Source: Xanthostigma xanthostigma
Taxonomy: Eukaryota; Arthropoda; Insecta; Raphidioptera; Raphidiidae
Assembly (NCBI GenBank): GCA_963575645.1
Contig: OY754469.1
Span: forward strand, 20,168,001-20,232,000
Direction: 5' to 3'
Length of the DNA: 64,000 nt
The notes below the pieces were generated by a model. That model saw only the letters and a list, made by a program, of their open reading frames with translations. It was not told where the DNA came from and searched no databases. A program made the position numbers and the translations under genes. Of the stretch, positions 1,680-58,100 are shown piece by piece (the first letter of the stretch is position 1; the number at the start of each line of letters is the position of its first letter).

Positions 1680-4600
1680 GTTAGTAAGTTGATTATATGT
1701 ATATCTATGTTTTAATTAGCTTTTACTCGCGACTTCTTTTGCGTGGAATCAGTGTGTACAATTTATATGATTGCTTAAAAAAATCACTCTAATTTAAGAC
1801 GGTTCAATAAACAATGTTTCTGTTTTACTATCTTTTGCAAAAACATAAAGATTTTGTGAATTCGATTCACGTGAGCAAGCCACACACAGCTGGTTGTGCG
1901 AAAAACATGATATTTCTGAATGAATGCCAGCTTCCTTAAGTGTTTACCCTTGAGTTTTGTTTATAGTTACTCCGAAAGCAGTTTTTAATGGAAATTGTAA
2001 TCTTTTAAATTGGAAAGGCAAATCCATTGGTATAATTGGTATTGGTGGTATTAAAACTCTCCTTTAGGTTTGCCACTCATCATAATAGCCCTAACAATAT
2101 TTTGACCCAGATGAGAAACTTGTAAACGTGTACTATTACACAATTTGGGTACATCAAGATTTCTCATTAAAAGTACCGAAACACCTACTTTTAATCTTAA
2201 TTTATGAGAAGGCATTCAACCCCTTTAGGGGTTAATTTTTGGAAATAAGGTAGTTTATGTTGTTCCCCAGAGTTTAAACTATCACCATGTTAAATTTCAT
2301 CACAATTGACCCAGCGATCTTGCCGTGAAAGCGTAACTTCATGAAATATTACAATCCTCACTTCATCCCTATAGAGATTGAATTTTGAAAAAAAAGTAGG
2401 CTATGGGCTATGTGCAAGGAGGCGGAGTTACAAATTTTTCGATGCGAGCGTTTGTGGTGAGCACTAGGGGAAACTTCAAACTCAAATTTTCCGTATGTCA
2501 GTGAGCAATGTGTATTAAAAGTGAAAATAGTTATAATTTTATGAAATTTTTTAATCACAAAGAATACATAGAAAAACTAAGCGATCTGGAAGTGCTTGTT
2601 GTGTTCCGGCCTATTGCGCTGATGGCGATTTAAGTAAAATAAAGACCATTGGCGCCCTAATTTGACGTTCCGCTGTCAGTGTAAACAAATTAACATCAGT
2701 TTTCCTTATTACATTTTTTTTAACACACCATGGCCAACTAAAGTTTTTGACTTATCACCGTAGAAACATGTCGCGATATCCATAAAAAGTGAGTTCAATA
2801 GTTCTCTATTACCCACTAGCGGCGCTAGTAGGCTTCGTGCACACAGCCTATGTCCTTCCCCTAACTTCCAACTATCTTCATATTAAATTTCATTATAATC
2901 GGTTTAGCGGTTTGGCCATGAAAGCGTAACAGACAGACAGTCACTTTCGAATTTATAATATTACTATTCGGAACTCAAAGGAATGGTGAGACCTCTGGTG
3001 AGAAATGCGCCGAACTACCCCAAAGGGGGTTTTTGACAGGTAAACTATAGAGGCATAAGGTAAACAATGTTTACCTTATGCCTCTATAGTTTACCTGTCA
3101 AAAACCCCCTTTGGGGTAGTTCAGCGCATTTCTCACCAGAGGTCTCACCATTCTTTTGGGTTCCGAATGGATAGTCTGGAGGTTTGAAAATAGCCGAGGT
3201 ACTCTATATTACAATCTCTGTGTCCTCAAATTCTCATCTGAGAACTGGTAACAGTATCAATTGGATTTTGAGTTTATTATTAGAAAACAATAAATTGGAT
3301 ATATGAATTGATGCTAGTTTTAAATAGCCTTGGCTGATGGTGATCTTAAAAAAAAATAATAGTCCGGCTCTGTATGTGTATCCGACGCTCTGTTCTTTGT
3401 TGATATAATGTGTACAATATAAAGATACATCACAATTTGCAACATTGGAACATGCGAATGTATTAATGATTTTGTTCTGTAACTGCATTTCTGTAAGCAT
3501 TGTAAATCGTTAATTGCAACGGAATGATATAAATCGAACAAACGGCGCAGTTTTTCATTGGCTCATTAATTTATATATATATTTATATACATCCATAGTT
3601 TATGCGATGAAACAATTTTATCATGGCTCTGTGCAGTCGTCATGCGATTATTCAACGGTTAAATGATTTTTTGTTTTCATTGAGTTTTTAATTAAATCCA
3701 TCATTTGAAATTTAGTTTTTACCGTGTTGTAGTCGATCATTCATCCGTTCATGGATAATTTCACTTTAAACGTCGACATAAAAGACGGCTCATCGTTATT
3801 CTTAATTTTTATGCCGCTAATGTAGTGTTCTAGTTTCTAACTAGTTTAGAGAACCGAAAATTCTATATTAAGTAGGTATATAAAATCAACGTTGTATTCG
3901 CTGTGTGCGTATTGGAAGCACCACCTACCATCCGCGACTTTTCATGCTATGTTATAACATCGTGTCAAATAAGCATATTTCAAATAACTGTCATAATAAT
4001 TAAACGAAACCTTTAATTGTCGACATTTTAATACCCAGTTAAGGAGACATAGTGTTTTTGTTGTTGCATTGAAAAAAAAAAAAACAGATTGAGTATTATT
4101 ATTTAGAAAATGTGAAAAAATATATATTATTCGTAATTTTATTTCCACGAAGACTACTGGCACCACTAGCAGGCAATAGAGCGGGATTGATTTGCCTTGC
4201 TATTATTGTTTTAAAACGTGAAGCTTCTTAATAAACGATATGGCAGGAATCGCGACGAAAACATGTGACGGCTACATGAAATCATACTCTACAACCGTTG
4301 CATGATTTATTTGCTCATTTAGTCCATAATTGACGCTGAGATCGATTTAGTTGTCCCTTTATACTGTACAGTGTACACCCGGCCAATAACATCTGGTTCT
4401 AATTGTAATTGATTAAGTATGTATAGACCCATGTATTATTTTTTCAGGTTTAAAAATATATTATTAATTATATAATGTTTCGTCTTTAATTTGGGCCTTT
4501 TACAGACGTTCTAGAATATTAAACAATAATTAAACTAAAAATACAATATTATATTAGATATCGTGCCCATCGTGATAATAATAATAAGAAAAATCGCAGG

Positions 4601-7600
4601 ATTGTGAACAAAAAGATTAGATTTATTTAGTGGTTAATGTTGATATTCATAATAATTGTTTTTTATTTTCTGTATGTACTTGAAAAATTCTATAGATGAA
4701 TCTATAGACGAAACGTCTAAATAAACACTAAATCTGCTATTTTTTCCACAATCCTGCGATTTTTTTTATAACTAAAAATACAATATTTACAAAAAGCATT
4801 TTTGGGAGAATCTTGAAAAGTTAAATAATAACTGATCTGAAAATTTAGTCTGATTACTTTAAAAAAGAATAAACTTCTAAAAAGTAGGTACCTACGTACG
4901 AAAAAAACAATATTTAATATTTTAATTGTTCGTTCTCGAGTAAACTTTCATTGCACTTAATTTGTGCTCTGGCTCTTCGAACCGTTTTTTAGATTATTTT
5001 ATTAGTAGAGGAGTATACATAACAAATATAAAATATATATAAATTTTAAGCCGCGCACCTAGACCTTGGTGGCCTGCAGTCTTCTACCTACTTGTTAATT
5101 AAAATAATGTTCATATTTTACGCGTTCGACTCTCAACAAAAGATAATCTTTATTGTAATTTTGCTTTTCTTGTGTACAAACAGAAAAGTTATAATAAGTA
5201 AAAAACATACTATAAACGAAGGTTCTTTGTTTATTATAGCTGTTGTTCGGTACTACCCGAGTCGAAAATATATGTATAAATTTCGTAAATTTCGACAGTA
5301 ATTTGTTAAGTTATTATTTTTAATTCTTATATTATTATATTATATGTATATTGTAATATAATTTAAACATTACATTTTTATCGCACCCAATTTGGGAGTA
5401 CAGTGTAAACTCTTTATAACGTCCTTCGTTATAACGAAAAACTCCCTATAACGTCGAAATTTTTACGATTTGGTTGGTTTACCTTAAAACCTATACATTA
5501 ATACCCTTTTTATAACGCAACAGCCATTCTCTATTACGAAGAAATATGTTCATATTTGGGCGTCAGCAAATGTTTACAGACATAAAGAGGACCATTCTGA
5601 ACCATCACCATCTATTCAACAAGCACTTGAGGCCAAACTTATCGAAAAATTCCTATTATTTAATGAAGATTATTCCACCACATCCCAAGGCATGCATAAG
5701 ATACTTAAAATACAAAACAAATATTGGCATAGCGAAAAACGTCAGGCAAATTTAACAAACTATAGGTATATGTGTTTGGAATAAATTAATTTTGTGAAAA
5801 TTGGTTATTTTTCTTTCTTCCCTCCATATAACGAAAATTCTTTATAACGAAAAAAATGTTCGGTCTCTTAAAATTCGTTATAAAGAGATTATACAGTACA
5901 TTGAAGATTATTGTTAATTTGGTTGTTTTTCTTTCTTCACTCCATATAACGGTAACTCTCTATAACGATAAAAAATGCTCGGTCCCTTGAGTTTCGTTAT
6001 AAAGAGTTTACACTGTATTTTGACATTGTTTTTACTTTAAAGGTTTTGTTATTTTTATTAACGGACTGGTTCTGAGTAAAGTGAATTTCATTTAAGAGTT
6101 TTGTTTATATGGTAGCTATTCATTAATGCAATACAGAAAACCTTTCCACATAAAATTAAACATTGATCGGGCGTCCAAGATGGTTCGGATGTAATTTGTA
6201 AACTATGAGACATTCTGGCCTCTGATACAGGTTAGCTTTCCGATGTGAAAAACTTAAGTAATTTTCTCGTTCATATTTTTGTGACAGAAAATTCTACGTT
6301 ACTGCGGGCTAAAGAGTTTCACTGTAAAAACATTATATTCAGTTACGTTCAGAATAATATAATTTATGGATTAGAATCAAAATCAGCCTATTTGCTAATG
6401 TAGTCAGTGAAAGTAAAAAATTGAGGATGACTTATTACAGATGCAATGTGCTCCGTATCTATTATTTTTAATAAAAAAAATGTTTAAAAGATCTTCGTTA
6501 CATTTTCGACATGACTAAAACATTCTGTATAATTTCTATAAAGTAATAGACAGACGTAACTCGAGACAATACTTTAATTTGATTTGTATGGTTTAATAAT
6601 CAGTCGACCGAAGTAATTAATAATAGATACTGGAAATAAAATCTCAGTTATAACATTGGAATATTAAATGTAGGTCTTTGCGAAGGACGGATACTTTAAA
6701 TAATAAATAGCTAGATGATGTCGTACTCACCTTTTTGTCAAATCAAACATATTATTGTGCTGAAGAATCAAATTGTTTTTAAATATATTGTCATCAACTG
6801 TCAATTGAGTATTTGATCAGACATAAATGGCGTTTTAGGCATCAGAACTACCCCGGGGCAGGGCAGGCTGAATGAGTAACAATTGGTTAAAAAATTTGTT
6901 TATTGTTTACATATAAATATTTAACCAATAGTTACCCATTTGGCCTGCCCTGGCCCGGGACAGTTTTCGAAAGTGCAGCCATAAAATAAAATCGGTCGGC
7001 GCATTTAGTAGAAAACTTTGCACCTTGGAAATCATATCTGGCTTTCGACTGTGTTCTTCGACCATTATTCGATTTTATTTTACTCTTATTATTTTTTAGC
7101 ATTTAATACACTGTCTATTGTTCAGTAAAACCGTTTAACTTAAAAATGTTTTCTTAACTTCTATTTTATCCAGCAACGATTTGGTTACTTGTTTAAATTG
7201 ATATCATCATATTAGTATGAGCGAAGTCACTGGTAAAGGCATGTTTCGGGTTATAATTAAATGATGTTTTAGAAAACTAATTCTGGATAAATATCCGATA
7301 ATATAAAACTCTTTATATTAAACTCTGTTAGGAAATTGGAGGGAGGAAAAGATTCCGGCTGCACTCAGGCGTTCAAGGGTTCGTTCAGTAACCGCGACCC
7401 GAACGCTCTCTTGGGCCTTCATGAAAAGTTGCCTCGGCCATTCGTGTTTTTTTTCATGGCAACCAAATATTTGGTTTCCAAAGGTTAAACTGGGGCTTTG
7501 CCACTTTGTTATTTATAAATTTTGGTTTATTTTGTAGCTTTTATTCGCGACTTGGCTTGTATGAATGTCGATTTTGTCCAAGTTTAAGAATTAATCATTC

Positions 7601-10600
7601 TATCCACAAAATAAAAAGCTTTTGTTAAAAACTTGACAGGAAGACCTGCCTTGTTGAACATTATTGTATAGATACTCCTGATTGATAAAAAACGAAAACA
7701 AAATTGACCTTTTGATATTTTGAAGGCATTTTCTGGTTAAGGTCATTTTTAACATATTATTGAAGATGTCCTTAGGTGATTATATTTTTTTTCTACTGCT
7801 TATTGTCTCAGTTTAAATAATTAGTCATGCAAATTACAAAGACCTTGACAATGGACCGATGATTTTACGTGTCTGAAGATCATGCTCATTTAAATGCGAT
7901 TAAATAATAATAATGATATTAAAGATGCTTTGTGTGCGTGAAATTAATAAAATACTGGAATTTGCAATACTTAAGTAATAGTTCAGGGAATAAAGACAAA
8001 AAATAAGTCAAACTTTGGAAAAATTAGGGGAGAGCTAGATTTTCGTATGAACCTTCCTTTTGTGGTTCTAAACAATATCCTAAAAGTTCCCACCAATACA
8101 TGTGCCGATAAAATGTTACGCGAGTCAAAGGTCACAAAAAACGGGTTTTCGCGAAAATCTCGTTAACGGGCACTTTTAAAATAGTGGTTATCAAATTGCC
8201 TACAGAAACATAGTATCACTTTTTTCCGTAAGACTAAAATTATCAATTGTATACGTACGACGTACGACGCATGCGGCATAGTGCTCGTTCTGTCACCTCG
8301 CATTCATTCAATCGCTTAGTAAACCTAAGTATGTGTGTGTAACTGCATCAAACGAATCGAAATAATATACGAAACATAAACGTTACAACTTTTTAAATCA
8401 AATTTTATCGAAAACCGCTAGTCTTACGAAAAAAAGTAATACTGTTTTTTGTAGCCAATTTTCTAATTACAAATTTGATAGCCGCTATTTTTTTTCACCG
8501 TTAACGAGATTTTTTCGAAAAAACGTTTTTTGTGACTTTTCATCCCACGTAACATTTTTAGCGGTAGATGTATTCGTGGGAAACTTTTGGTATATTGTTT
8601 ACAACCACGAATGGGAGGTTTATGCAAAAATACAGCTTTCCCCTAATTTTGATACTCTGAATTAATGTCTCTTTTCCCTGTATTATAACGCATGATGGCA
8701 GATTCGGTGTGAATTTTAATATACCTAATATGACATTTCCATGGCTCCTTTATTATAGGCCTCCAATTTACAGGTTCAAATTTAAGAGCTTGTAAAAGAA
8801 TGGTAAACGTGTGTCAATTGAGTTTTCAATTTATTATTAAAAAATAAGGAGTTAGTTGAAAATATGAATTAATACTAAGCACAAATAGCCCTATCTGTTG
8901 GTGACTTTATTCTTGTAAATGTTTTTTTTTTATTTTATGTAGCAGCATATAATGAATAATTAATCAAAAGTTGAAATACGAACGTATTAGTTGTTGTCGA
9001 GTTTGAGAGTTTTTTTGAATGACAAAATGCTTGTTTGTTACAGTTTAGTTATTTATTAAAAACAGAAAAAAAACTGTTGATTGAGTTTGATTTATTTTGA
9101 ACTAATTTTAGTTAATACAGCAATATGGTTTTGGCAAAATGAGGTAACTGATTATCACATTTAGGTAAGCAAATTTTGGTTCATATGACCAAACACTTAT
9201 TTATGACAAGAAAATATTTTCTTCGCCAAATCTAGACCAATATTTTGACTAAACATTTTCTGTAAAAATGAAATTAGAACGTTAAATCACAAAATAAAGG
9301 CCGTTCTGGTTTACTTGTTTTGGATTTTTCAAACTCTTTGGTTTTAGGAGTATTCAATGTAATGCCAAGCTTTGTGGCTAAATCTTCATCTGCCAGTCCA
9401 TTTAACAGTGCAAGATCTAAACATTGGCTGTAATGTTCTTTGTGTCCATATGTCAAATTAACTAACGCTAAATAGCCCCATGCTTCCGGTACTGTGTTGT
9501 CAAGGAAATTTGCTTCTGTAAAACATTCTTCGGCGTCATGAACTCGAGTCATATCTAGAAAACATTTCCCGGCTTCTAGCCAACTTATTGGTGTCGGTGA
9601 ATATTTACAGTTTAAAAGAAACAGATTCGATGCTTTTTCATACTCACTTTTATTTTTGTACCAATTTCCTACACGCATGTGAATCAGGTGAATATCGTTG
9701 TCCCTGTCGTACGAATGCAAAACAGTCTCGTAGCATTCGATAGCTTTGACCATTTCATCCATTTCATAAAAGCAATGGCCTAAAAGACTTCCGACATGTT
9801 TGTCGACGCCATAAATTTTAACAGCTTCCTTTAAATATTCGAAACATTGTCGGTACTTATGCTGTAAAAAGAACGCAACAGCAAAATAGTAACTGTAACT
9901 GGCTGAATTTGGTGTATCTGTTAAATCTTTAGCTAATGCAATTTCGACAAAGTCGTATGCTCGTAGCTTTAAATGCATAACAGCTGCTTTTATGTAGATT
10001 TGATTTTCTTTCCAAAGTTTTGTGTTCCAAGTAAGATCCTCAGTGTTCATAAATTCGTCCTCAGCTGGGCGATTTACCGTTTTGGTATCATAGTCTAAAC
10101 ATTTTTTGGCCATTTCATATGCAACATCAGCTCCTTCCAACATATCTTGTTTTAAATAAAATATTTGTAAAGTGACCCAACCTTCTAGAAAGTTACAATA
10201 ATATGTCATTAACGTTAATAGGACGTCTTCAGCATCTTTCAATCTATTTTCTTTCATGAGAAGAAATGTTATAAGTAACAACCCATATTTGTGTTTAACA
10301 TCTAATGTTAAAACTTCACGACATATTTCAAAAGCCTCTGAGAATTTATTTATATCTAAGTTAAAAATAGCATAATCCAACCAAAAATCCGGATTTGTTT
10401 TGTCAAAACTAATTCGTTTTAATAAATATTTTTGTGCAGTGTCGTAATTTTTCATTTCTTGAGCTTCTTTAGCAAAGTAAAGCAATTTTTTTTCACAAAT
10501 AAGTACATCATCAGCGGATTCGACTTTTTGATCATATATATTGTTAACTTTTAAGTGCATTTCCTTTATTAAATAGGCGTATAAATTTGAAATATAATTC

Positions 10601-13600: not shown

Positions 13601-16600
13601 TTGGCGTTTACCAGAACCCTCTAGCTTTAAAAATAGCGTCGGGAGAGCGCGAACCGTTTTCAGGCGAGGGGAAAAGATTTGAGATTAAGGGTGCAGGGGG
13701 TGTTTGCAGGGACGAATACTCTTAACATCGAATGATATATTGCAACTAATCATCGATATCAAAAACATCGCATCATAGGTTGCAAAAGATCGGTTACATA
13801 TCGACGTTAGTGAAGTGTCGATGAAATTCAACAAATTTTATCGTTGTTACAAAAACGCCGGTTGTAAAACATCGGTGACAAAAACATCGGTTGTAAAAAA
13901 TCGATGGAAAAACATTAATATCGAAAGTAAAACATCGATGTTTTTGGAACATCGCTTTCCTATGCTCATCCCTATACTTCTAGGGTTACCAAATTATAGT
14001 AGAATTGCAACTAAATTCGCTAGACTGAAATATAAATTGTAAACAATTTCTTGTTTTGGAAACAAGAAAGATTTGTTTTTTTTTTCAAATTAATGATGGC
14101 TGTATCAACTTCTTTCGAAAAAAATCAAACCCTCACAAATTCTTGAATCGGCTTACTGTTGTCATCATAATTTGCAATTGAATTAAGAATTCAGTTTTAT
14201 AAAGAGCTGCAAACATAATACCAACAGTTTCATTATTCAAAAAACTAATTTGTTTTTATTGAAATAATTCTTCAAAATTCTGTTAAAAATAAACTTTGTC
14301 TTGTCGGTGTTGGGAATTAGTTAAATTAAATGGTTTTTATAGTCATAATACATTTTAATTTTTAATTACTGATAATTATGATGCTTCACATGTGAATGCT
14401 TTATATAGTTCATAACTTGTTTGTTAATTGTAACAAGTAGTAATAATTGTACAGTGTATAATATAAAGTATACTTTTTGGTTTCATGAAACATAATACGT
14501 CACTATCGTTAAGAATGCGATTTTCAATTTAAAATATTAAAGTATCGATGCGATGTTGCAAAACTTTCTGTGATACAATCACAAATCTTGAAGAAGAAAC
14601 TAAAAATTTCGAAGCTTCAATACTAATGAAATATTTTCAACTGCTCCAATAAATAAAATTATCGACCAATTTTTCAGACAATATATTAACAAACAATATA
14701 AAAAAATTAATACATTAACGTTTCGATCCGGATTTGGATCTTCTTCAGAACGGATCTAAAAATATAAAAAAAAAATAATTAATAATTAGTTTCTATTTAC
14801 TTTGAATGGAATTCGTGATAGATATTTTTAAAATATAAATATTGAAAAAATAATAACAAACAATGTTTTATTATGTAGTCATGGAAATAATTTGAGCACC
14901 TATAAAGAAAGAAAAATTATTAAAAACAAATTATTTCAAAATAATATTATATATATTACTTAAATTTTCCGTATCTAATTGAGCATTGAGAGAATTTTTA
15001 TTTGATTTTATATGTAACATTTCCGAAATATTTCTTTTAAAAAAATTAGTTTCATTATCTAAAATTTTTATATCATCCCAATTAATTTTGTGGTCAAGTT
15101 CTAATTTGTGTTTAGTTATTACATTATGTTTGTCAGGGATTAATTTGTGATTATTTTGATGCTCTTTTATTCTTGTTTTAAGAGCTCTTTTAGTTTGACC
15201 AATATAATTCTTAGCACAATTTTCACAATTAATTTTATATACAACATTATGCTTTTGAAATTTATTAATTTTATCTTTTCCCTTTTTAATGTTAATAATA
15301 AACTTGATAAAATTATTAAAAAGGGAAAAGATAAAATTAATAAATTTCAAAAGCATAATGTTGTATATAAAATTAATTGTGAAAATTGTGCTAAGAATTA
15401 TATTGGTCAAACTAAAAGAGCTCTTAAAACAAGAATAAAAGAGCATCAAAATAATCACAAATTAATCCCTGACAAACATAATGTAATAACTAAACACAAA
15501 TTAGAACTTGACCACAAAATTAATTGGGATGATATAAAAATTTTAGATAATGAAACTAATTTTTTTAAAAGAAATATTTCGGAAATGTTACATATAAAAT
15601 CAAATAAAAATTCTCTCAATGCTCAATTAGATACGGAAAATTTAAGTAATATATATAATATTATTTTGAAATAATTTGTTTTTAATAATTTTTCTTTCTT
15701 TATAGGTGCTCAAATTATTTCCATGACTACATAATAAAACATTGTTTGTTATTATTTTTTCAATATTTATATTTTAAAAATATCTATCACGAATTCCATT
15801 CAAAGTAAATAGAAACTAATTATTAATTATTTTTTTTATATTTTTAGATCCGTTCTGAAGAAGATCCAAATCCGGATCGAAACGTTAATGTATTAATTTT
15901 TTTATATTGTTTGTTAATATATTGTCTGAAAAATTGGTCGATAATTTTATTTATTGAAGAGTTCTAATCAGACGTTAATCAAAGATTTGAGTATTTTCAA
16001 CTGCGATAGGTATTTGTTGTTGAAAGCTACTTCACATTTTCTATTACAATATACTGGATGATTTTTAAGTTGCTTCTTCTTTTTTGACAGTTTGTAGAAA
16101 TCAAATAGACGAACAAATATTTTAAGTAACTATTTTATTAAAACTCAAAAATAAGAGAGAAAAAGTCCGTTCAAAGTTTGATTAAATTTTTTTAAAATTT
16201 TATTTAATAAAGAAATAAAAACTCGGGTCGCAGTGCGAAACCCTGCCGACAATATAGTGTATTTGCTATTATAGGCAGTGTGGCTCCCTTATATAAACTT
16301 AACTTCATTTTTTAACAAAATAAAAAATTAACCCCTTAATACACCCCTTAAAATAATATTTTTTCTTAATTTTAATATTGTTATCAATACAACAAATTAA
16401 ATTCACCCTTCACTAAATAAATCCATGTCTACAAACTAACGTTTTCATAAAATTTTTAAGTCCGGTCCTGTCGGGCCGATTTTAATTAAATTTTGGTAGC
16501 ACATTTTAATCATTACTAAAGGGTTAAATTTCAATTTTGAAACGATTCGGAGAAATTTTTAGGTATTTTTGGGCCCAAAAATATTTTTCAACCCCTAAAA

Positions 16601-19165: not shown

Positions 19166-19197
<32 letters not shown>

Positions 19198-34100: not shown

Positions 34101-37100
34101 AGTGTTGGACATCATGTAAAATGAACTACAATATTTAAGGGATAGGGATGAGCCTTCCAGAAATATCTATAGGGTTTTTAGCAAATACAAATTTAATAAC
34201 TCTTTTAGCCTGATATTTCGATTTTACTTTGAAGTAACAACTTTAGCAAATTAATATAAAAATAACATTTGAAAAATTGATTTTTTAATGTTTTTTATTT
34301 TATTTTTTTCAGAGTGTCTTTATCGATTCCATTAAAAGTCGACAGCGAAGGACGTTTTGTTCCGGACCAATGCAGAATGTTTGCTGTGAATTATACCGAT
34401 TTACTGGCAAAAGGAATCGCTCATGCTGACCCCACTTGGCCAATAGTTCCATGCAAGCATGGCTGGGAATTTAATTACACAGAGATTCCATATTCAACTA
34501 TCGCATCAGAGGTTAGTCAGACATTTGTTAAAATAATTGTTGTAACAACAAATTATAATAATTAACTTGCAGTTAGAGATTTTGCTTTAACACCAGGATA
34601 CATCCTTATAATGAGAAAAGATTAAGACGTACTTCTTACTTTATATTCTATTTTTATGAAATTTACGTAAAAAATAGAATTTAATGTTTGTTGTCACGAC
34701 TTTCTATGATTAGAAAAATTTATATTTGAAAATAACGAGACTTTTCTCTTTCTCATGTAAAAAAAAAAAAATAAAACGGAAGTTTTATAGTTGACTCTTG
34801 AGTTTTTTTTCTATATTACTCTGAAACTGAAATGAGTAACTTATTTTCGGATATACTGACATAATAGTGTTTTCCTGGGAGTATTTATTCTATTTATTTA
34901 TTAAAAACAATCCGTTAAACACAAACCCAACCATATAAACGTTCCTTAAAATTTATAAATTACAAAACTGCATATAACTTTGTAATGATAATTTATTATG
35001 TTTGCCGTTTTATGTATTAATTATTGTAATAAATTAATCGTGATTCATAATCTTACGACATGGACGTATCAATTAATATCTATTATAATGGCATAAATAA
35101 CGAATAATATATTTTGAAATTCATTATAACAACATTTTTTATTCCTTTTCTTCGCAGCTGGAGTGGGTTTGCGACAAGGCAGCATTACCGTCAGTCACCA
35201 CAGCGGTGTTTTTCGGCGGTGCAATTCTTGGTGGTTTGGTATTTGGATGGTTAGCCGATCGTCATGGTCGAATCCCAGCTCTGGTCGGCACGAATTTGGT
35301 TGGATTCTGTGCCGGAATATTAACTGCGTTCGTCAATAGCTTTTGGGCATTTTGCGTGTGCAGATTCTTGGTTGGAATGGCATTTGATAACTGTTTCACT
35401 ATGATGTACATTTTGGGTAAGTTTGGATATAATTTAATAGTATGTACATTTTGTTCCAAAAAGTGGTTCTTCATTAAAAAAAAACATCTTCTGATTTATT
35501 CATAGATAAATGTTACGCTCTTCGCATTCGCTACTATATTTATTATAGGTATTTTAAGACTTTTTCCATGTTTGTTAAAGGAAACTTCTAACGCTTCTAT
35601 TATTATTATACTTAGGGCTTCCATAATAGATTTCCCACATTTTGCAATTTCGGAATTTCGTACAACATTTTTAAAAACATAACGTAAACATGTGTCAATT
35701 TTGGAATTGGAGAAATGAATATCGGAAATCCGAAATTAATGAAAAAGTATCAAAAATGAAATATGAGCATATTTTCCCTTAAATAAAAAAATAAAGAATA
35801 GTTACTTTTTACTACAACAGTTTTATTAGCGGATGTACATTTCGGGAGCTATGCTCTCATCTTCAGCAAACACTAAACTGAAGATGAGAGAATAGCTCCC
35901 GAATGTACATCCGCTAATAAAACTGTTGTGGTACGAAGTAATTATTCTTTATTTTTTTTTTGACGTGATAACGTCTTATAAATTGATGAATCACCGATCT
36001 TATAAATTGATAAAACACCGGCTGCATGCACGAAAAAGTGTAACGTTCCTAAAATCCTAACGTTCCTAACGTTCGTAACGCGTAACGTTCCGCCTGACCT
36101 TGTGCGTGCTTTTTGCTAATTTCTCGCTCAATTTAAATCAGATCGGTTTGAAACTAGTCTTAAACGAAAGAGGAGAACATTTTACATAGATTTCGTATAA
36201 CAGAATTTGCCTAAACAGTTTTTTTATACAAATTTATATAGAAAAATTGCTGTATAAATGCAATGTTGTCTAATGCATGGCGCGACGCGGTCGGTCGTCT
36301 TTGTTTGCCGTACATGGAAATTAGAAGAAAACGTATGTCTTGTCTTAACATGAAAACGGCTGCATTTCTAATGTTTAATACAATTTTTTGACATTAGTAT
36401 TTTGTGAAATGCAACGCCTTCTAAGTTAAGTATTGGAATAACTAATTATTATTAGAACATAATACTTTGACAGTTGCAAACGTCACTTTTGACATTTCTT
36501 ATCATTCCGACACCAAGGATAAGCGGATTGAAACCAAATTTTGGGAGGTTTAGGTTATGTATTACGGAATACGTTATCACGTAAAACTATCGTCCGTAAA
36601 CCGACTTTACAGACAACCAATTTTTTTTTGTTTCAATCACAGTGCTCTTAATATATTTTGTATATATTTTCCCTTAATTTACGGAACAAGAAGAGAATTT
36701 TTTACCAATTGATGATCTCTTTAGAGTTATAGTGTGTAAATTTTTTAACAGGTTTTTAATAGCTTCACTTGTATGTTGTACGTATGTAAAAAATCTTGCA
36801 TCTTTATTTTCATCCTCTTCCAATGTCGATAAAATATCAACATATCGATTAAATAGTGTTGTAGTAGCGACGGCGGCAATCAAACATATTTTATGCACAG
36901 AATAGAAATCTTGTACATTAACTAAGACTAGATCAAGTGCATTACATGTTGGCAGCAGTTGAAGTGCAACAAACAGAGGCGGCTCGTCCTTTGTAGCAAT
37001 ATTTATAATTTCGATTTTTTATACAGGGGACACCTCCTTTTGCGCGGAGGTTTAGTTCCATCATCTTCTTGAAACCGTGGATAGTAGCAAATCACTTTAA

Positions 37101-40100: not shown

Positions 40101-43100
40101 TTTTTAATAGTGTGGATGAGCGATACGAAATGATTTTGACAAATTCGTATTGTTACAATGTGCTACAGAGAATTTAACACATTTTTGAAAATCGACCATT
40201 TTTCGGAGCTCATAGCTAGGCAAAGATTGGAGATAGATAAAAAGTGTGAAAACTAAAGTTGTAGAGAATTTTATCAGCTTTCATTATGTATTCCAACAAA
40301 ATTTCGTACGACGTACCGTTTTCGAAATGAAAGCAAAATACCAAAAAACGGGACCTTCTTTGTGCTCCCCCCCTTCGGGCGTACCTCGGAGGGGTAAGGA
40401 CTTTTAGTATGTTTATCTCCTAACTAGTCCAAACAAAGTTCCTAAGTCAAATGTTCTGCTTTCGACTTTTCCATCTAGAATTATTCGTTGCTTAAGCTAT
40501 TTACGCAACTTTTGGTATATGTATAATGAACTATTATTGAAAACATTTGTCTAGCTAACAATCATATTATTATTATTTTTTATTAATATTATAAATGCGA
40601 ATGTAAGTTTGTTTGTTACGCTTTCACGCAAAAACTACTTAACCGATCATCATGAAACTTTGCACATACACTCTTGAAGGTATTAGAAGTAACATAGGAT
40701 ACTTTTTATTAAAAAAAAATAAAAATTTTTTACGAAAAATAAGAAAATTGTTTGTCAAAATATGTGCAATACCTCAACCCCTGATATGCATGTCAAAAGT
40801 CGATTTCCATCTCAATCGCGGGCGTAGCCGCGGGTAGCGGCTAGTTTTTAATAATTAACCTCTGACAGACCTTTTGTTATAAATCATTTTTATGGTTCCG
40901 TACATTAAAAGGAAAAAAGGAACCTTTATAGGATCACTTTGTTGTCCGTCTGTCTGTCTCTCAAGACTCTTGTGAATCAAAACCTATAGGGTACTTCCCG
41001 TTGATCTAGAATCATGAAATTTGGCAAGAAGCAATGTCTTACAGCACAAGTAAAGGGAAAAATCCGAAACCCGTTTTGCAGTTAGGTACATCACAAAAAA
41101 ATTAATAATGTTTTGAAACCGCAACAACGTGCTACGCACAGTAACAGTTCTAATATAAAACAAGCGTCCGCTACCGATGTGTTTATATAACGCAATATGA
41201 GAACTCTTGCGTACAACACGGTACGACAGCTAGAATACAAGATATAGTCTCGAGGTACAATACAATTCAGTAGTCCATCTGAACTCATTGCAATTACACG
41301 CTTGGTTGGCAAACTGACCGCGACATTTGTCAATGTATGGGGACAACAGTTTTCCAACAGCTAAGCGGGAAAGATCTTCGAGACTCGATTCCCTTGATGG
41401 ACGAACTATTTACATACCTTCAAGCTTGTACGGAACCCTCAGTCCGACTCGAACTTGACTGTTTTTTTTTATGAAAGTGCATTTCATAACACCTTATTTT
41501 TTGCCTTAAAATGAAGTTTGTCAAAAATTCATAAAAAATAACAATTAACAAATTTTTAATAGTCTGGCGGACGTAACTTGATTTTTACGTTTTGCGACCA
41601 TTTTGACTTTTTAAATTTGGGGTCTTTGATAATGGTTTGACGGGAGCTTGGATTATTTGTTTTAGAGAAAAATCTAAAAGTACCTACTTGCCAATTAACT
41701 TTTAAATTAGATACTTTTGTGGGAAATCTGTAATGGAAAAGTAAACACGTCACAAATTAATGCGCCACTCAGTTTTTACGTTATATTTTTAATATTGAAG
41801 AAATCAGCTGACTGGAAGCAGTTTTTGTTTTCTGATAAGCCCGGAATAAGCTTTGAAGTCAGCAGATGCTTGTAAACAAGTATGCAATTATCTCTTCAAG
41901 GGAACTGCAAAAATATTGCAGGCGGCAAATCTTCCAGACTTTACCCATATCGTTCAGGATCATGGTTTGAACTTCATCAGATAATCAAATAAGTTTCCAG
42001 TTCAATTATTTATATACCGCATATATTTATTCAATATATTGATTAAATGTGATAAACCTTAAATACCTTGATTTGATAAGCAGTTGTACGAATAAATAAA
42101 ATTATCAACCAATTTTTTCAGACTGTATATTGACAAAAAATTAAAAAATTATAATTCAATATCTCAATAAATGACCCTTCGGTCCAGATTTGGAAATATG
42201 TAATCTAAAAAATATAAAAATGAATTAGTATCTACTTATTTTACAATAGAATTAAGACTGATTTTTTAATATAATTTTTAACTAGTTTTCAAAAAGTATA
42301 TAAAAAAATTCAGTCTTAATTGTAAAATAAGTAGATAGTAATTCATTTTTATATTTTTTAGATTAGATATTTCTGAAGAAGATCCAAATCCGGACCAAAA
42401 CGTCATATATTCAGATATTGAATTATAATTTTGTAATTTTTTGTCAGTATAACAGGCTGAAAAAATTGGTTGATAATTTTATTTATTTGAAGATTTCTAT
42501 TCAGACGTTAATCTAAGATTTGATAAGCAGTTGCTTTAAAAAAATTAAAACAATTTTTAATTAATCAAATTATTCGCGTAAACTACAAACAGTTTAACCT
42601 TTATGCTAATAGTTCATCTCAACAATACTTAAGTTACGGCACTGATAATATACAGACGTGTAAACCTTTAAATGCATAATTAAACTGATTTTGACATACA
42701 TACGTTTGATTATTGGGTCCATTTCTGGCACGTGTTCTGTTTAGTATGTACAGTAAAATCTGCAAAAAAACAACGTTTATAAATATTTGTCATCGACGCG
42801 TGTTGAAGTTTTGAATGTGCAGCTGACGGTTGCTGTCTCGAATAATATACCGTTTTTTTCCAAATAGTGTTATTACTATTAATCTGAGAAAGTGACAATT
42901 CAGTTTTGAAAAGTCATCTTAGTATATCTTGATATACTGCGCTAATATTTGAATCGGTTAACATCAATTGTTAGTATCGAAATAGTTGGCAAAACCAAAA
43001 GTGCACATCTTCCACTGTATGTAAAAAAATATAAAATAAAAACAATTGAACAAGTGCCTATTTAATAAAATTAAAGAAAGATTAATAAATTTAAAGAAAT

Positions 43101-46100: not shown

Positions 46101-49100
46101 GTTTCACGTGCTGTGTGGCCGATCGCACCGTCTTGTTGAAAAAACATATCCTCCACATCAATCACATTCAATTCGGGCTACAAGAACTCCGTTAACATTT
46201 CGCGATTACACACGGCACACACCATTATCAGTTAGCGCATTTCCAGCCCCATTTTCAAAGAAATATAGATTCCCTTACTGGGGCTATATTTTCAAGTGAC
46301 CGACAAGAATGATGACGAATAATGATCTTCTGATCCATCAGCGTAAATTTGATCTCAAATTTTGTAATTAAACGCCTCACTGTCGATTCATTTGGCGCAT
46401 AATGCGACCGAAAACTTGACGTAATTGGCGAACTGTTTTCGCAAAACTTTCACCATTTTTGTAATGTGTTTTTATAATAATTAAACGTTTTTCGTTTGAA
46501 TACTTCTCCATATTCTTAAATCGCGTGGTCTGTACGTGACAACTGTCAAAAAAAAAAATTACCGTACAGCGCAAATTAACAAAATGGCGGCAAATTTAAA
46601 TCCGGCGCTCTTGTTCATACAGCGGACCTTTTATCGTGTCTGGGAGGTGGGCCGGGGGTCTGTTAGGACCTTCGAATTGGTCTGGCAGCTTACAAAAGGT
46701 CTTAGAGTAGTCCACTAAATAATATTATGTAAAATTCACGAGTTTTATAATAATGTAGGTTACCCATTTTTTTCTCGAGCTTTGAAGCGTCTAGCGGAAG
46801 TTCGGTCTCACGGAAAGTGTCTGGCAGTAATGAATCTTGGTTTTTAATAATATGGTGTAAAACACAGATATATGAAAATCAGCAGTAGTTACTTTAACGT
46901 AGGTAAGCACGGTTTTTATGTACCTTTAGTACCTGTTATCTCTAAAGGGTCCCACTTTCAAACTAGCAAATTGGCATACGTCTCTAACTAAATATTACAC
47001 ATTTATTGATAAAATATTAGCTGTACTGAAATGATGTAGGTCTGGTGGCTCTGGGATCTTGCTCTAGTAGCTATACCGACCGTCAACAGATTACAAAAAT
47101 AATTTATGTTGACTCTTGATTAATTTTACTGGTCTCGAATTACTGTTTTCATCGCTTGAATTTAAGAGTAATAATTTGACACTTCGTAAATGGAGATCAT
47201 ATAATTTATAACATACATATAGATGTATACCTATTTTTAATAATTAGTTATTTATCCAGTTCAATGCCAACGAAAAATATTAATTACATGATCGGCTTCT
47301 ATCGTTGATCAATATTAAGTTAACTTATATAATCAAATATGAATTTCATAATTAAATATACAGAGATAAAATACTTACCAACATAATACTCCATGTCCAT
47401 GAGAACGATTTGATTGGAATGATACATCTATGGAGACGACTACTGACTTCTTCGTCTCAAAATATCGATGCAAGAATACTGTTCTTTTTTCCTTTTTTTT
47501 ATTATATTTAATGTACACAACTAATATGTATTATTTTTTTGTATACTATGTACTTGTAGGTGTTAGTGATAAAATGTCGAAATACCATTAAACACTTTAT
47601 AAAAAAAAATCAAGTTCTACAAAATAACGTTAAAAGATGTCGCATTTTTTAGAAGAAATTATAATATTTGAACATACTGACGCAACGCGACGTCTTCAAA
47701 CAATTTAGGATTGACTAGGCTCAGCACAGTTTAATATTTTGCGTTACGGAAAACATAAACATTCTCCTTCACCCAATATGGGACTTGAACCCGCATTCCG
47801 AGATTAAGAGTCTAGAACTTTATCACAGGGCTAATGACATCGGTTCCGTATATCGCGTGATACTACGGTATATCAATCTGACAATTATTCATAAATTTTA
47901 AATTAATTAATTGTTTATAACAATTAATGACGCCAGAGTTTTTAAATGTAAAAATAAAACCTACAACAAATATATTATTGATTTTGTGCTTCCATAAACT
48001 TTCATTTGAACCCTACACGATGCACGTAAAACAAGTTTTTTTTTATTTCCTATTTCATCTCAAGAAATTGACCCCCGATATAAAAATTCAACTTTTTCAC
48101 GTCTGTGATTGGGCCACCATACTCTGTGTGCCAAATTTCAAATTTTTATGTTAAATAGTATAAGAAAGGATGAATTATTTCGAAGAAGGCTATAAATGAT
48201 TTCTAATGGTATATGCTGCCGACGTTTCGGAAAATATATTTGCTTCCTCAGGGCTTACATATTATATATTAGAATTATTTGATTTGTAATTCTAATATAT
48301 AATATGTAAGCCCTGAGGAAGAAAATATATTTTCCGAAACGTCGGCAGCATATACCATTAGAAATCATTTATAGCCTTCTCCGAAATAATTCATCCTTTC
48401 TTATTAAACATAGGCTAAACTAATACACCTTACACGTTAAATAGTATCAGAGAAAATTGCCTGTGACTGACGGACGGACGGACACCAAAACGATTTCACA
48501 AGCGTTTCGTTTGCACGGAACACTAAAAATTAAAAATATGAATTAGTACTAGACTCTGACTAGACTCAAATAACTCTGACTGATGATGGAAAAGTCACGA
48601 ACCAAATGAGACATGTAACATGAAGACTAACTCCTTACTTATGAATTGCAAAGATGCACGGGTTATCTACGCAAGAATGCAACACTGTGTTGGTGCATTG
48701 ATAAGGAATGACCTTCACGTAACATGCGTTTCGTTATGAATTATGATGCACGAATATTTATCAATTAATTTTATTTATACATAAATGAAGAAAAAATGTA
48801 GGTACAAGGATTTGTTCAATATTACATTGTTATTAATTATGCATCTATAACATCTGGATACACAAGTCTACTTATTTACCGAGATATATTCTTTTCTGAC
48901 AATCTATATATCTATATACTATTTATATATACTAGCCGTTACCCACGGCTTCGCACGAGATTGAGACGAAACACGGATGCATTTCCATTATTTGGCATAG
49001 TTACTCCTTTCTCGACGTAGACCCCCCTAATAAATTTCAAAATTGATGACATTTACGTGATCAACGTCCTGAAAAATCTTGAAAATGACATCCATGTTGA

Positions 49101-55100: not shown

Positions 55101-58100
55101 GGGGCCACCACAAAAGAGGGACCCCCACAATAGAGACTTTGGAAAAAAAATTCAAATTTCCTGAGCATTGAAAGTGATTTACTTCGGGAACTGGATTTCA
55201 GCTCGGAAAGTTCTGTTCGTTAGTGCTAAAATTTAATTTTTAGATAATTCTTGTTTCTGATTATATTTATATGTTTGTTAAATAATAAAAGAATCTATAC
55301 TTGGTTTCACAATAAATTATTTATTGGAAAAATCGACTGAAAAAAATTGTCCATTTTATTTGGAAAATAATTTGGGGCCAGGGGGCCTCCACTCCTTTGT
55401 TGCCCCGAGGCCTCCAGACCTCTAAATCCGGCATTGTGCACAACGTTTTGAATTGCAATGACGTCGTTATACGGTTATATGTATCAAGTCCGTCGTACTG
55501 CTCTACACACGCTCGGATATTGTACCGGACCGGACCAAGTACGATGTGCATTTCATCGAACCGGGCGGACACGCAGACTACTCTACAGACGAACAGATTT
55601 GGTACGGAGCGGACCAGATCCGCTGTCCGCTTCGAACCAAGTTCGAGCGTCTGTTAGTACTATTAGCTAAATCGCGTACCGACGCTGTTAAATTATATAA
55701 ATTCTAATTAACTGATTTGTCAATCATAAAAATCGAGCATTAGGTGAGAGAATTGGCAAAATACAGGTAAGCACGCTCCATTGATCAAATACTAGATTCC
55801 AGTCAGATTAAATATTAACAATCGGAAAAATCTTCTTTCAGAAGATCTCTACAATCTCGGTATTTACCGATGTGACAAACTTTTTCGCTGACGCAACCTA
55901 ATACTGTTGGGTAGGAAATGAAATAACCTTTCATTTCATAAAAATATTGATTAAATAACTGATGAGGGTATATTAATAACGCTTGCTTACCTGATTAGAC
56001 CTGGCAACTTCACAGTTATGCTGCGGGGAAAGTGAACAGCGTCTATTTTTCCAATTCTTGTGTCGTATTCTCTCAGCTAATGCTCGATAAACAAATCGGG
56101 GAAGTTGATCCAAAAAAGTTAATTAGAATTAATGGTATTTAACAGCATCGGTATACTATGCGCGGCGAAAGATGAAGCCACCGCGTCATAGTGACGTGAA
56201 TGCATTGCGCCAGACTTCTAGCTTGCTATTGGCTGTTTCAGAGATCCATGTGCGTCGAGTGTTTATTTTTATTCTACCGCTATAAATAGATAGGTATGTC
56301 GAATTTATTCCACACGCTATTGTCTGCGGGCAAGTACGCGTTCACTAGCAGATTATTGATGACGTGCCTGGCTTCATCTCTCACCGCGGGCACGCGATTT
56401 AGCTAGACAGCCCATTTGCAATTTATCAATGAATATATTATATAATATATTAACTTTTGTCATGATCAAATAACAGATCAGGGTATATACTTCTAATACC
56501 GGATCTTAGAGTATTAGTTCATTATGAAAATCGCAGCAGTCGTCGTGCTGCGACTTCCGCGCGGCTGTCTTCCCGTGATATTTCCGCTCGTGTGAATACA
56601 ATCTTAGTTAATAGCGTTGTGCAAACACTGTTTGTACTTGGTAATATGATGCCTTGTGACATAATTTTACGCAGTATCATTAAGTGACATTTTAGATGAT
56701 GGATATTAGGATTATGCTACATGTTGAAATTAAATTTTGTTTTGCAGATGGCTGGTGTCTCAAGGAAAAATTGAAAAAGCACTCACGATAATGAAAAAAT
56801 TCGAAAGAATCAACGGCACACATGTTGATCCACAAATTTATCAGGATTTCTCGGTAATTATTTATTAATCGTATTTTAGACGATTTTTTGAATACATTTT
56901 TAACAGAAGATTTCCTTGTTATTGTTTGTTTCCTTTGTTATTGTATTGCGAAAAATAACTCTAATAATTTAGAGTGATGATGATCCTGTTTAAATGTTGG
57001 AAGATTAAAAGGATGAATCCTGGTGGCATAGGATCGATGAACTAAGCAAATACTGAAGGTTTTTTTATTGCATTTTATTGTCTGACGTTTCCGAAGATGA
57101 TAAAAATTTCCGAAACGTCAGACAATAAAATGCAATAAAAAAACCTTCAGTATTTGCTTAGTTCATCGATCCTATGCCACCATTATTCATCCTTTTAATC
57201 TTCCAATTGTTTAGTATGGTCAGGACCGTAAGTAGCTTTTTTGGGCACTGCAACTCTAAATTAAGAAAAGGTACTTATTTCCCCAAAATAATAGTTTTAA
57301 CCAGTAGGTAGTACAACCACAAAAACAAAGCTTGGAGAGAGCTAAACATTTTTTAGCTAGGTATGTTTCTACTGATGTCTACGAACAATTTTTAAATTTA
57401 CGTGTATTTTTCATGTTCTTTTTTAGCTACTATGTTGTTAGCATAGGAGATGGGAGGAGTAGGTGGCTACTATTTCCCAACAAAAAATTGTTGAAAGACG
57501 TACAGTTTTTACCATTCCAACCCACAAGTGGGGAATGGTACGAGTTTAGGTCAAAAATCACTTTTCAAAAATTTTACAATATCTTTCCGTTTTGAGGTCC
57601 CTCGAATCCAAAAAACATATTTTTGGAAAAACTCTGTGCGTCTGTTAGTCGGTTTGTCTGTTAGTCTGTGAACACGATACAGCTCAAACGGATGAGCGGA
57701 TTGAAACCAAATTTTGGGAGGATGTTTGGTATGCAAATATGAAGGGCCCTATTGTTTTTGGGGAAAATCGGCGCATGCGCAGAAGAGATATATGCTATAA
57801 CGGTGTTTTTTATATAATAATGGTATACTTTTCATAACGGCTTGTTATTCTATTTATTTTTTCAGGAAAGTTTCGTTAAATTTTTTTTTCTAAACTTTAT
57901 AGTTTCGGAAATATTTTGAAAATAAAAAAAAATCAGTCGCTCTTTTGTTTTATGGATCTGTCAGAAATAAACTAGTTCGGCATGCTTTGATTAATTTTTA
58001 CATGACGTGGAACATATTATGTAGGGAACCATGGCAACGAGTAGCAAATATAATATTGAATACTAGCCATTACCCGCGTCACCTCACGCGATATCAGAAA

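What the first reader, a model, noticed from the sequence alone, without database searches (positions are those of the whole stretch)
4533..57204. Recurrent snap-back form of Penelope-like insertions
At least five loci of different sequence subfamilies (4551, 14645, 35783, 42087, 48162) have the same plan: inverted 3' ends, a right-hand tail missing on the left, and a 12-18 bp target duplication; a sixth (56999) lacks a clear duplication. That repetition across families suggests that the inverted dimer is a normal product of target-primed integration in this genome, for instance by second-strand template switching. This is the best candidate here for an undescribed mechanism.
Basis: partly seen in the sequence, partly recalled or inferred. 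Interest (0 to 1): 0.78.

Follow-up and report, generated by a model that had tools for sequence, protein, structure and literature searches.

The report
Paired-start inverted Penelope retrotransposon insertions
Jumping genes of the Penelope type in this animal-like genome often land as two mirror-image copies, and one copy almost always carries a short extra tail that the other lacks, which suggests that both cut DNA strands are extended from two neighbouring start points on the element's RNA.

Summary
The full plan is real at four of the six loci: 4551, 14645, 42087 and 48162 have inverted 3' ends, a tail on one arm only and a 13-18 bp target duplication. 56999 has the one-tailed arms without a clear duplication; at 35783 I found none. 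14645 encodes the GIY-YIG end of a Penelope-like element (PLE) in both arms, and an RT-bearing relative exists.
Inverted PLE ends with a tail on one of them are already published; the plan is not new.
The wider pattern says more. Of 94 head-to-head dimers from five families, 89 scored exactly one tail; duplications far exceed controls (51 of 94; 0 of 570 shuffled). Single-arm copies of one family use both start sites (9 tailed, 11 tailless), so the pairing in dimers is not chance. In 55 of 89 one-tailed dimers neither arm contains the other, which excludes snap-back copying for those. Arms of young autonomous dimers share one source.
Best reading: two target-primed cDNAs, one per cut strand, each from a different one of two adjacent RNA start sites, perhaps on one RNA, then joined head to head. 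One exception (L123) looks like true snap-back.

The parts
4533..4550 (.). target duplication, left copy, locus 4551 (right copy 4770-4787)
   Evidence: 18 bp exact
4551..4632 (-). tailed arm of locus 4551 (tail about 4551-4584, on the left)
4672..4768 (+). tailless arm of locus 4551
14632..14644 (.). target duplication, left copy, locus 14645 (right copy 15992-16004)
   Evidence: 13 bp exact
14645..15290 (-). tailless arm of the 14645 PLE dimer; overlaps ORF 14931-15461 (-), GIY-YIG end of the PLE protein
15283..15959 (+). tailed arm of the 14645 PLE dimer; overlaps ORF 15144-15674 (+), GIY-YIG (PF01541 21.3 bits, cut-off 22.6)
15960..15991 (+). tail; matches the stretch just upstream of the ORF in tandem copy L115
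35782..35866 (-). left arm of locus 35783; duplication not found
35877..35962 (+). right arm of locus 35783
   Evidence: 40 of 40 scored genome places match on both strands (whole-palindrome query)
42070..42086 (.). target duplication, left copy, locus 42087 (right copy 42517-42533); its first 7 bases also continue the tail
   Evidence: 17 bp exact
42091..42309 (-). tailless arm of locus 42087
42259..42516 (+). tailed arm of locus 42087 (tail about 42488-42516)
48150..48165 (.). target duplication, left copy, locus 48162 (right copy 48436-48451)
   Evidence: 16 bp, one mismatch
48160..48291 (-). tailless arm of locus 48162
48287..48439 (+). tailed arm of locus 48162 (tail about 48405-48439)
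56947..57091 (-). tailed arm of locus 56999 (tail about 56947-56996, on the left)
57090..57206 (+). tailless arm of locus 56999

Best explanation
These are insertions of GIY-YIG Penelope-like retrotransposons and of short non-autonomous relatives, made by target-primed reverse transcription from both cut strands. The endonuclease cuts the two target strands some 10-18 bp apart. Each 3' end primes a cDNA at one of two adjacent internal start sites of the element RNA: one at the end of the tail, one 28-50 nt further upstream. In dimers the two strands use different sites, most simply because both RTs share one RNA. The two same-sense cDNAs run towards the RNA 5' end, stop independently and are joined head to head. 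Repair of the staggered cut leaves the target duplication. Shown by sequence: PLE identity, duplications, one-tail rule, non-containment, same source in young autonomous dimers. Inferred: a single shared RNA, timing, the joining step.
For: (1) PLE: both arms of 14645 carry a GIY-YIG end; L115 is a pLTR-ORF-pLTR copy with an 819-aa ORF, RVT_1 E 6.4e-10 in its middle part. (2) Internal start: in L115's upstream pLTR the tail runs on towards the ORF start, so the tail end need be no RNA 3' end. (3) One-tail rule: 89 of 94. In samples whose query did not select for the tail, window loci included: 56999 family 40 of 40, autonomous 6 of 6 scorable plus 5 of 5, 48162 family 17 of 19, while single-arm copies there are 9 tailed to 11 tailless. 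(4) Neither arm contains the other in 55 of 89, by 469 and 1307 nt in autonomous dimers L109 and L114. (5) Same source: autonomous arms differ by 0.32% within and 5.2% between loci; the young source groups L108/L109/window and L111/L114, 7-8% apart, are not mixed within a dimer. (6) Duplications. (7) In vitro, a lizard PLE cuts and extends both strands from two adjacent internal starts that bound the tail (PMC11167929, main text).
Against: The in vitro study saw no difference in start site between the two strands, so exclusive use is not explained by that reaction. Three of 94 dimers scored tailless on both arms (L020 is a true exception; L098 looks cut at its end; the ends of L112 lie outside what I fetched) and two scored two-tailed (L123; L015 by eye is one-tailed). 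34 of 89 one-tailed dimers do not by themselves exclude snap-back. Same source does not prove same molecule, and in the 56999 family not all diagnostic sites agree: mixed arms in 0 of 37, 1 of 36 and 1 of 40 loci at three sites, but 4 of 36, 4 of 37, 4 of 39, 2 of 14 and 1 of 6 at others; some may be later mutations. L110 is complex, with an extra tailed piece inside, and could not be placed in a source group. The 11 tailless single copies were read only at their 3' ends, so some may be dimers with a very short partner. Copies that share a junction may not be independent events. The joining step rests on few junctions.
Confidence: 0.7

Rival explanations
1. Snap-back: one cDNA folds back and copies itself, or an antisense RNA self-primes (the published suggestion for rotifer Penelopes).
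For: Arms of autonomous dimers are inverted copies of one source and some junctions show inverted microhomology; self-priming is proposed in PMC3846280. L123 fits it: two tails and a palindrome running about 23 nt into the flanks.
Against: A copied arm must lie inside the first arm and carry the same tail; 89 of 94 dimers have one tail and in 55 of 89 neither arm contains the other. In only two of 94 (L112, L123) does the palindrome run more than 10 nt past the scored ends, and the true ends of L112 were not fetched.
Confidence: 0.08
2. Two RNA molecules of the same source, one per RT of a dimeric particle, with an asymmetric particle forcing different start sites.
For: Same source and one-tail rule are equally explained; a protein dimer is predicted for the lizard PLE.
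Against: Needs both same-source packaging and built-in asymmetry; the short families would need two RNAs of one source among sources that seem to have coexisted.
Confidence: 0.17
3. DNA transposons or MITEs with terminal inverted repeats.
For: Short palindromic families with many copies.
Against: Duplications vary from 10 to 18 bp, one end carries a tail the other lacks, junctions differ between copies (26 coordinate combinations among 40), and larger members encode RT and GIY-YIG. For 35783 alone it remains open.
Confidence: 0.03
4. Dimers were symmetric at birth and lost central sequence later, making arms unequal.
For: Palindrome centres are prone to deletion (established knowledge, not tested here).
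Against: Loss should ignore the tail, yet the tailed arm is the shorter in 32 of 40 (56999 family) and 14 of 14 (4551 family), P 1.8e-4 and 1.2e-4 if copies are independent; counting each of the 26 junction combinations of the 56999 family once it is 19 of 26 (by hand). Unequal arms also occur in dimers with almost no later change (L109).
Confidence: 0.02
5. A dimer, once made, is transcribed and reinserted as one unit, so the one-tailed layout is inherited.
For: One junction recurs in 8 and a near-identical one in 4 of 40 copies of the 56999 family.
Against: The autonomous dimers L108, L109 and the window copy, 0-0.3% apart, have three different junctions; 26 coordinate combinations among 40 in the 56999 family.
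Confidence: 0.02

Closest known systems
EN-containing Penelope elements of Adineta vaga (PMC3846280, passages and Discussion read)
   Same: Inverted head-to-head pLTRs, a 31-bp tail optionally on one of them, 8-10 bp TSDs, direct and inverted arrangements
   Different: There the arms mostly flank long elements and self-priming was proposed; here many short non-coding families show the plan, and containment excludes self-priming for 55 of 89 one-tailed dimers
Poseidon PLE of Anolis carolinensis, PAc (PMC11167929, abstract and main text read)
   Same: RT plus GIY-YIG, internal RT start at two adjacent sites bounding a tail, both strands cut and extended
   Different: No strand difference in start site was seen in vitro; here dimers use one site per strand
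L1 twin priming (recalled)
   Same: Second target strand primes on the element RNA and gives an inversion with a TSD
   Different: In L1 the two segments come from different parts of the RNA; here they overlap because both start near the same end. One locus (L096) does look like the L1 kind
Metazoan non-LTR retrozymes (PMC7761336, passages read)
   Same: Short non-coding units with hammerhead-like cores, likely moved by PLEs
   Different: Those usually occur as tandem repeats and give circular RNAs; these insert as inverted dimers or single copies, and in the 56999 family one of 40 ends at the cleavage site I predict from the recalled motif

Membership tests
GIY-YIG (EN+) Penelope-like elements | one ORF with reverse transcriptase and GIY-YIG endonuclease | tested here: met
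   RVT_1 E 6.4e-10 above cut-off in the middle part of L115; GIY-YIG E 3.3e-4, 21.3 bits against cut-off 22.6, in the window fragment. Against: the whole 819-aa ORF gave no Pfam match at 0.01, its C-terminal part no GIY-YIG match at E 5, and no PDB sequence matched
GIY-YIG (EN+) Penelope-like elements | tandem or partial-tandem copies forming pLTRs | tested here: met
   L115: pLTR upstream of the ORF and pLTR downstream
GIY-YIG (EN+) Penelope-like elements | short target duplications of variable length | tested here: met
   51 of 94 at score 10 or more, 0 of 570 shuffled
GIY-YIG (EN+) Penelope-like elements | inverted pLTR with a tail on one of the pair | tested here: met
   89 of 94
GIY-YIG (EN+) Penelope-like elements | hammerhead ribozyme in the pLTR | tested here: inconclusive
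   Core-like strings are present but Rfam gave no hammerhead at E up to 5
GIY-YIG (EN+) Penelope-like elements | RT of the PLE/TERT branch in a tree | not tested
   no tree built
GIY-YIG (EN+) Penelope-like elements | sequence kinship of the short families 4551, 48162, 56999 with the autonomous element | tested here: not met
   no match to the autonomous reference at E 1e-3 in the window, unlike 42087; they share the plan only, and their own autonomous partners were not sought
GIY-YIG (EN+) Penelope-like elements | 35783 family belongs here | tested here: inconclusive
TIR DNA transposon or MITE | fixed-length TSD and symmetric ends | tested here: not met
   lengths 10-18 bp, one-sided tail
L1-type twin priming | inverted segment not overlapping the 3' segment | tested here: not met
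   arms overlap by 597-933 bp in the seven head-to-head autonomous dimers compared
Metazoan retrozyme | circular RNA intermediate | not testable with these tools
   no RNA data

The most novel reading that the evidence does not exclude
PLE integration is a built-in paired reaction: one RNA carries two start sites precisely so that the two RTs of a dimer can each begin once, one on each cut strand. The optional tail is the footprint of that division of labour, and the inverted dimer, not the single copy, is the complete product.
Probability: 0.42. Interest if true: 0.78.

Novelty: new variant of a known kind. Interest (0 to 1): 0.6.

Why it matters
How PLEs integrate is poorly understood; the 2013 and 2024 papers leave the origin of inverted pLTRs open. 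A rule read from natural insertions (one tail per dimer, two start sites, same source in young autonomous copies, no containment) makes that question directly testable with a purified PLE protein, and it explains why the tail is found on only one side. The short families also show how little sequence such a template seems to need.

Tried and rejected
Rfam search for hammerheads: none among 43 matches up to E 5; the strong matches are miRNA look-alikes caused by hairpins, all under the gathering score. I first inferred that single copies always start at the tail (13 of 13 with duplications); a query without the tail and newly fetched ends (11 of 11 tailless) showed that this came from a query holding the tail, so I dropped it. 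A 24-bp 'duplication' at L113 was an artefact of the script, because that pair is not head-to-head; removing it turned 52 of 95 into 51 of 94. L015, scored two-tailed, is by eye one-tailed; the counts keep it as scored. In C5:7201 the script aligned the tail to the left flank, but the 12-bp duplication directly after the core shows that arm tailless. Hammerhead cleavage as the source of the arm ends: one of 40 copies ends at the site I predict (L063). That 40 of 40 copies of the 56999 and 35783 families are dimers says little about single copies, since the queries were whole palindromes.

Sampling. Used: 56999 family 40 of 40 scored places (1576 candidates); 48162 family 40 of 40 scored (205 candidates), 23 with an arm pair; 4551 family 15 loci out of the 40 candidates scored (1446 in all), 14 after dropping L105, which had one arm; 42087 family 9 places plus the window out of 40 scored (3570); autonomous, 8. 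Of the 15 head-to-head EN pairs within 10 kb, 13 besides the window were fetched; 10 could be scored at both ends, L112, C1:28.80 and C2:46.85 could not; the C22 pair was not fetched. Dropped as second hits of counted places: L047, L049, L058, L013, L014, L016, L017, L022, L025, L027, L028, L031. The tally without tail selection of the 48162 family (39 distinct places) was put together by hand. Without the three window loci the pooled count 68 of 70 is 65 of 67.

Papers: PMC11167929 abstract and main text; PMC3846280 passages and Discussion; PMC8969392, PMC5718144, PMC7761336 and PMC12910113 passages only; Craig et al. 2021 is not held. My searches (listings) showed no paper whose title or abstract start states a one-tail-per-dimer rule; most subscription journals are missing from that library.

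Full report
What is in the window. The window lies in an unnamed eukaryote genome of 623 Mb (G000, contig 6). All six listed places hold inverted arms. Locus 14645 is the key: it runs to 15991, its arms of about 650 bp are 99-100% identical, a 13-bp duplication flanks it, and both arms contain the same open frame, the C-terminal GIY-YIG part of a Penelope-like protein. The right arm ends with a tail of about 32 bp that the left lacks. 42087 is a diverged relative of this element. 4551, 48162, 56999 and 35783 are short families that share the plan, but I found no full-length sequence match to the autonomous reference.

Autonomous parent. The EN domain gave 150 scored matches of 3193 candidates. 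L115 holds a pLTR, an 819-aa ORF and a second pLTR; the ORF's middle part matches RVT_1 at E 6.4e-10. GIY-YIG was found in the window fragment just under Pfam's cut-off, not in the L115 pieces. In the upstream pLTR the tail is followed by the short stretch before the ORF's first ATG. Tail end and core end are therefore internal positions of a longer RNA, as in the lizard PLE, whose RT starts at two adjacent internal sites that bound the tail (PMC11167929, main text read).

Head-to-head dimers are common. Of neighbouring EN matches within 10 kb, 15 pairs are head-to-head, 2 tail-to-tail and none direct. A one-arm query of the 48162 family gave 39 distinct places: 19 dimers and 20 with a single arm. 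In the 56999 family all 40 scored loci are head-to-head dimers, and all 40 scored places of the 35783 family match on both strands, but both queries were whole palindromes, which favours dimers. Junctions of the 56999 family differ: 26 coordinate combinations among 40, the commonest seen 8 times; 39 of 40 junction windows are distinct, later point changes included. The autonomous dimers L108, L109 and the window copy, 0-0.3% apart, have three different junctions. So most dimers are made anew rather than copied as a unit.

Target duplications. Over five families, 51 of 94 head-to-head dimers have a duplication of score 10 or more; shuffling flanks between loci gave 0 of 570 and random site pairs 8 of 3000. 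Lengths run from 10 to 18 bp, median 13, 83% AT against 68% in the window (whose list also holds the artefact L113). Five further autonomous dimers have 9, 14, 13, 14 and 15 bp; among 20 mismatched pairs of these the best score was 10 and one reached 9. The four new 48162-family dimers share words of 12, 12, 14 and 9 bp (no control run).

One tail per dimer. 89 of 94 scored exactly one tail, 2 two and 3 none. Queries that hold a tail could favour this, so I looked at samples without such selection. The 56999 query held about 7 nt of the tail: 40 of 40. Autonomous dimers were found by protein: 6 of 6 scorable with the window copy and 5 of 5 more. In the core-only sample of the 48162 family 17 of 19 dimers have one tail (exceptions L020, L098), while single-arm copies are 9 tailed and 11 tailless. 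Both start sites are thus about equally usable there, and independent choice would make about half of the dimers one-tailed. Pooled, 68 of 70, binomial P 2e-18 at 0.5 if copies are independent. The trend 'single copies are always tailed', seen first (13 of 13), was a query effect and is withdrawn. L097, first taken for a tailless single copy, has a left arm made only of a 23-nt piece of the tail.

Neither arm contains the other. A cDNA that folds back and copies itself gives an arm contained in the first arm, with the same tail. In 55 of 89 one-tailed dimers the tailed arm has extra 3' sequence while the tailless arm has at least 5 nt of extra 5' sequence (32 of 40, 4 of 20, 14 of 14, 2 of 9 and 3 of 6 in the families 56999, 48162, 4551, 42087 and autonomous). 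In the autonomous dimers L109 and L114 the tailless arm runs 469 and 1307 nt further. Later loss of central sequence would ignore the tail, but the tailed arm is the shorter in 32 of 40 and 14 of 14, or in 19 of 26 distinct junction combinations of the 56999 family. The two dimers in which the palindrome runs more than 10 nt past the scored ends are L123, which has two tails and 23 nt of palindromic flank, just what snap-back predicts, and L112, whose true ends were not fetched.

Same source. Autonomous arms differ by 0.32% within a locus and 5.2% between loci. L108, L109 and the window copy are within 0.3% of each other, L111 and L114 within 0.6%, the two groups 7-8% apart; none of these five dimers mixes them, and L112 has its own type on both arms. 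L110 could not be placed. In the 56999 family arms agree more than arms of different loci (4.2% against 6.7%); three diagnostic sites are mixed in 0 of 37, 1 of 36 and 1 of 40 loci, but six others are mixed more often or rest on few loci. The two types at the second of these sites overlap in age. This fits one RNA per insertion but does not prove one molecule.

Joining. Inner junctions of autonomous dimers show inverted overlaps of 2, 3, 8, 13 and 36 nt and one 6-nt gap, against a random mean of 1.0 (8 or more in 0.2%). That suggests annealing of the two same-sense cDNAs at short self-complementary stretches, or template jumping. Other families gave overlaps and gaps in mixture, partly because the references end there. 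Numbers are small; this step is inference.

Placement. Inverted pLTRs with a tail on one of them, and TSDs, are known for PLEs (PMC3846280; PMC8969392). What I did not find in my searches are the near-absolute one-tail rule with a control for query bias, the exclusion of self-priming by containment, and the same-source arms. Together they favour paired target-primed synthesis from two sites over snap-back. The hammerhead nature of the cores was not confirmed.

Noticed in passing
   Followed up: partly
window 13428-13596, 44741-44901, 18266-18405, 22503-22668, 6855-6956, 3025-3109: Other hairpin repeats that Rfam matches as miRNA precursors, all below the gathering score; probably foldback or MITE-like elements. 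The first two look like one family by eye.
   Followed up: no
L096 (G000 C9:8055973-8057108): A copy of the 48162 family with a 13-bp duplication whose left end is an inverted internal piece, like L1 twin priming.
   Followed up: partly
L123 (G000 C8:35929880-35930410): Two-tailed dimer whose palindrome continues about 23 nt into the flanking DNA: the one clear snap-back-like product.
   Followed up: yes
L112 (G000 C7:27389512-27391860): Palindromic PLE copy with an interruption of about 330 bp at the same place in both arms; its ends lie outside the fetched stretch.
   Followed up: no
L113 (G000 C5:5749013-5751391): Tail-to-tail pair of autonomous copies, 0.3% apart, both tailless; not the head-to-head plan.
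   Followed up: no
L110 (G000 C4:30681614-30683889): Dimer with an extra tailed piece of the element, in minus orientation, between the arms.
   Followed up: no
L018 1500-1810 (48162 family): Internal repetition of a short segment (CCTGAGGAAGGAAATATATTTTC) inside one arm, suggesting template slippage.
   Followed up: no
L015 (48162 family): Tail merges into a near-identical 17-bp duplication (one mismatch, read by eye), so script and eye disagree on the left arm.
   Followed up: partly
window 9274-12513 (-): An intact open frame of 1079 aa, apparently a host gene with TPR-like repeats by eye, upstream of the 14645 copy.
   Followed up: no
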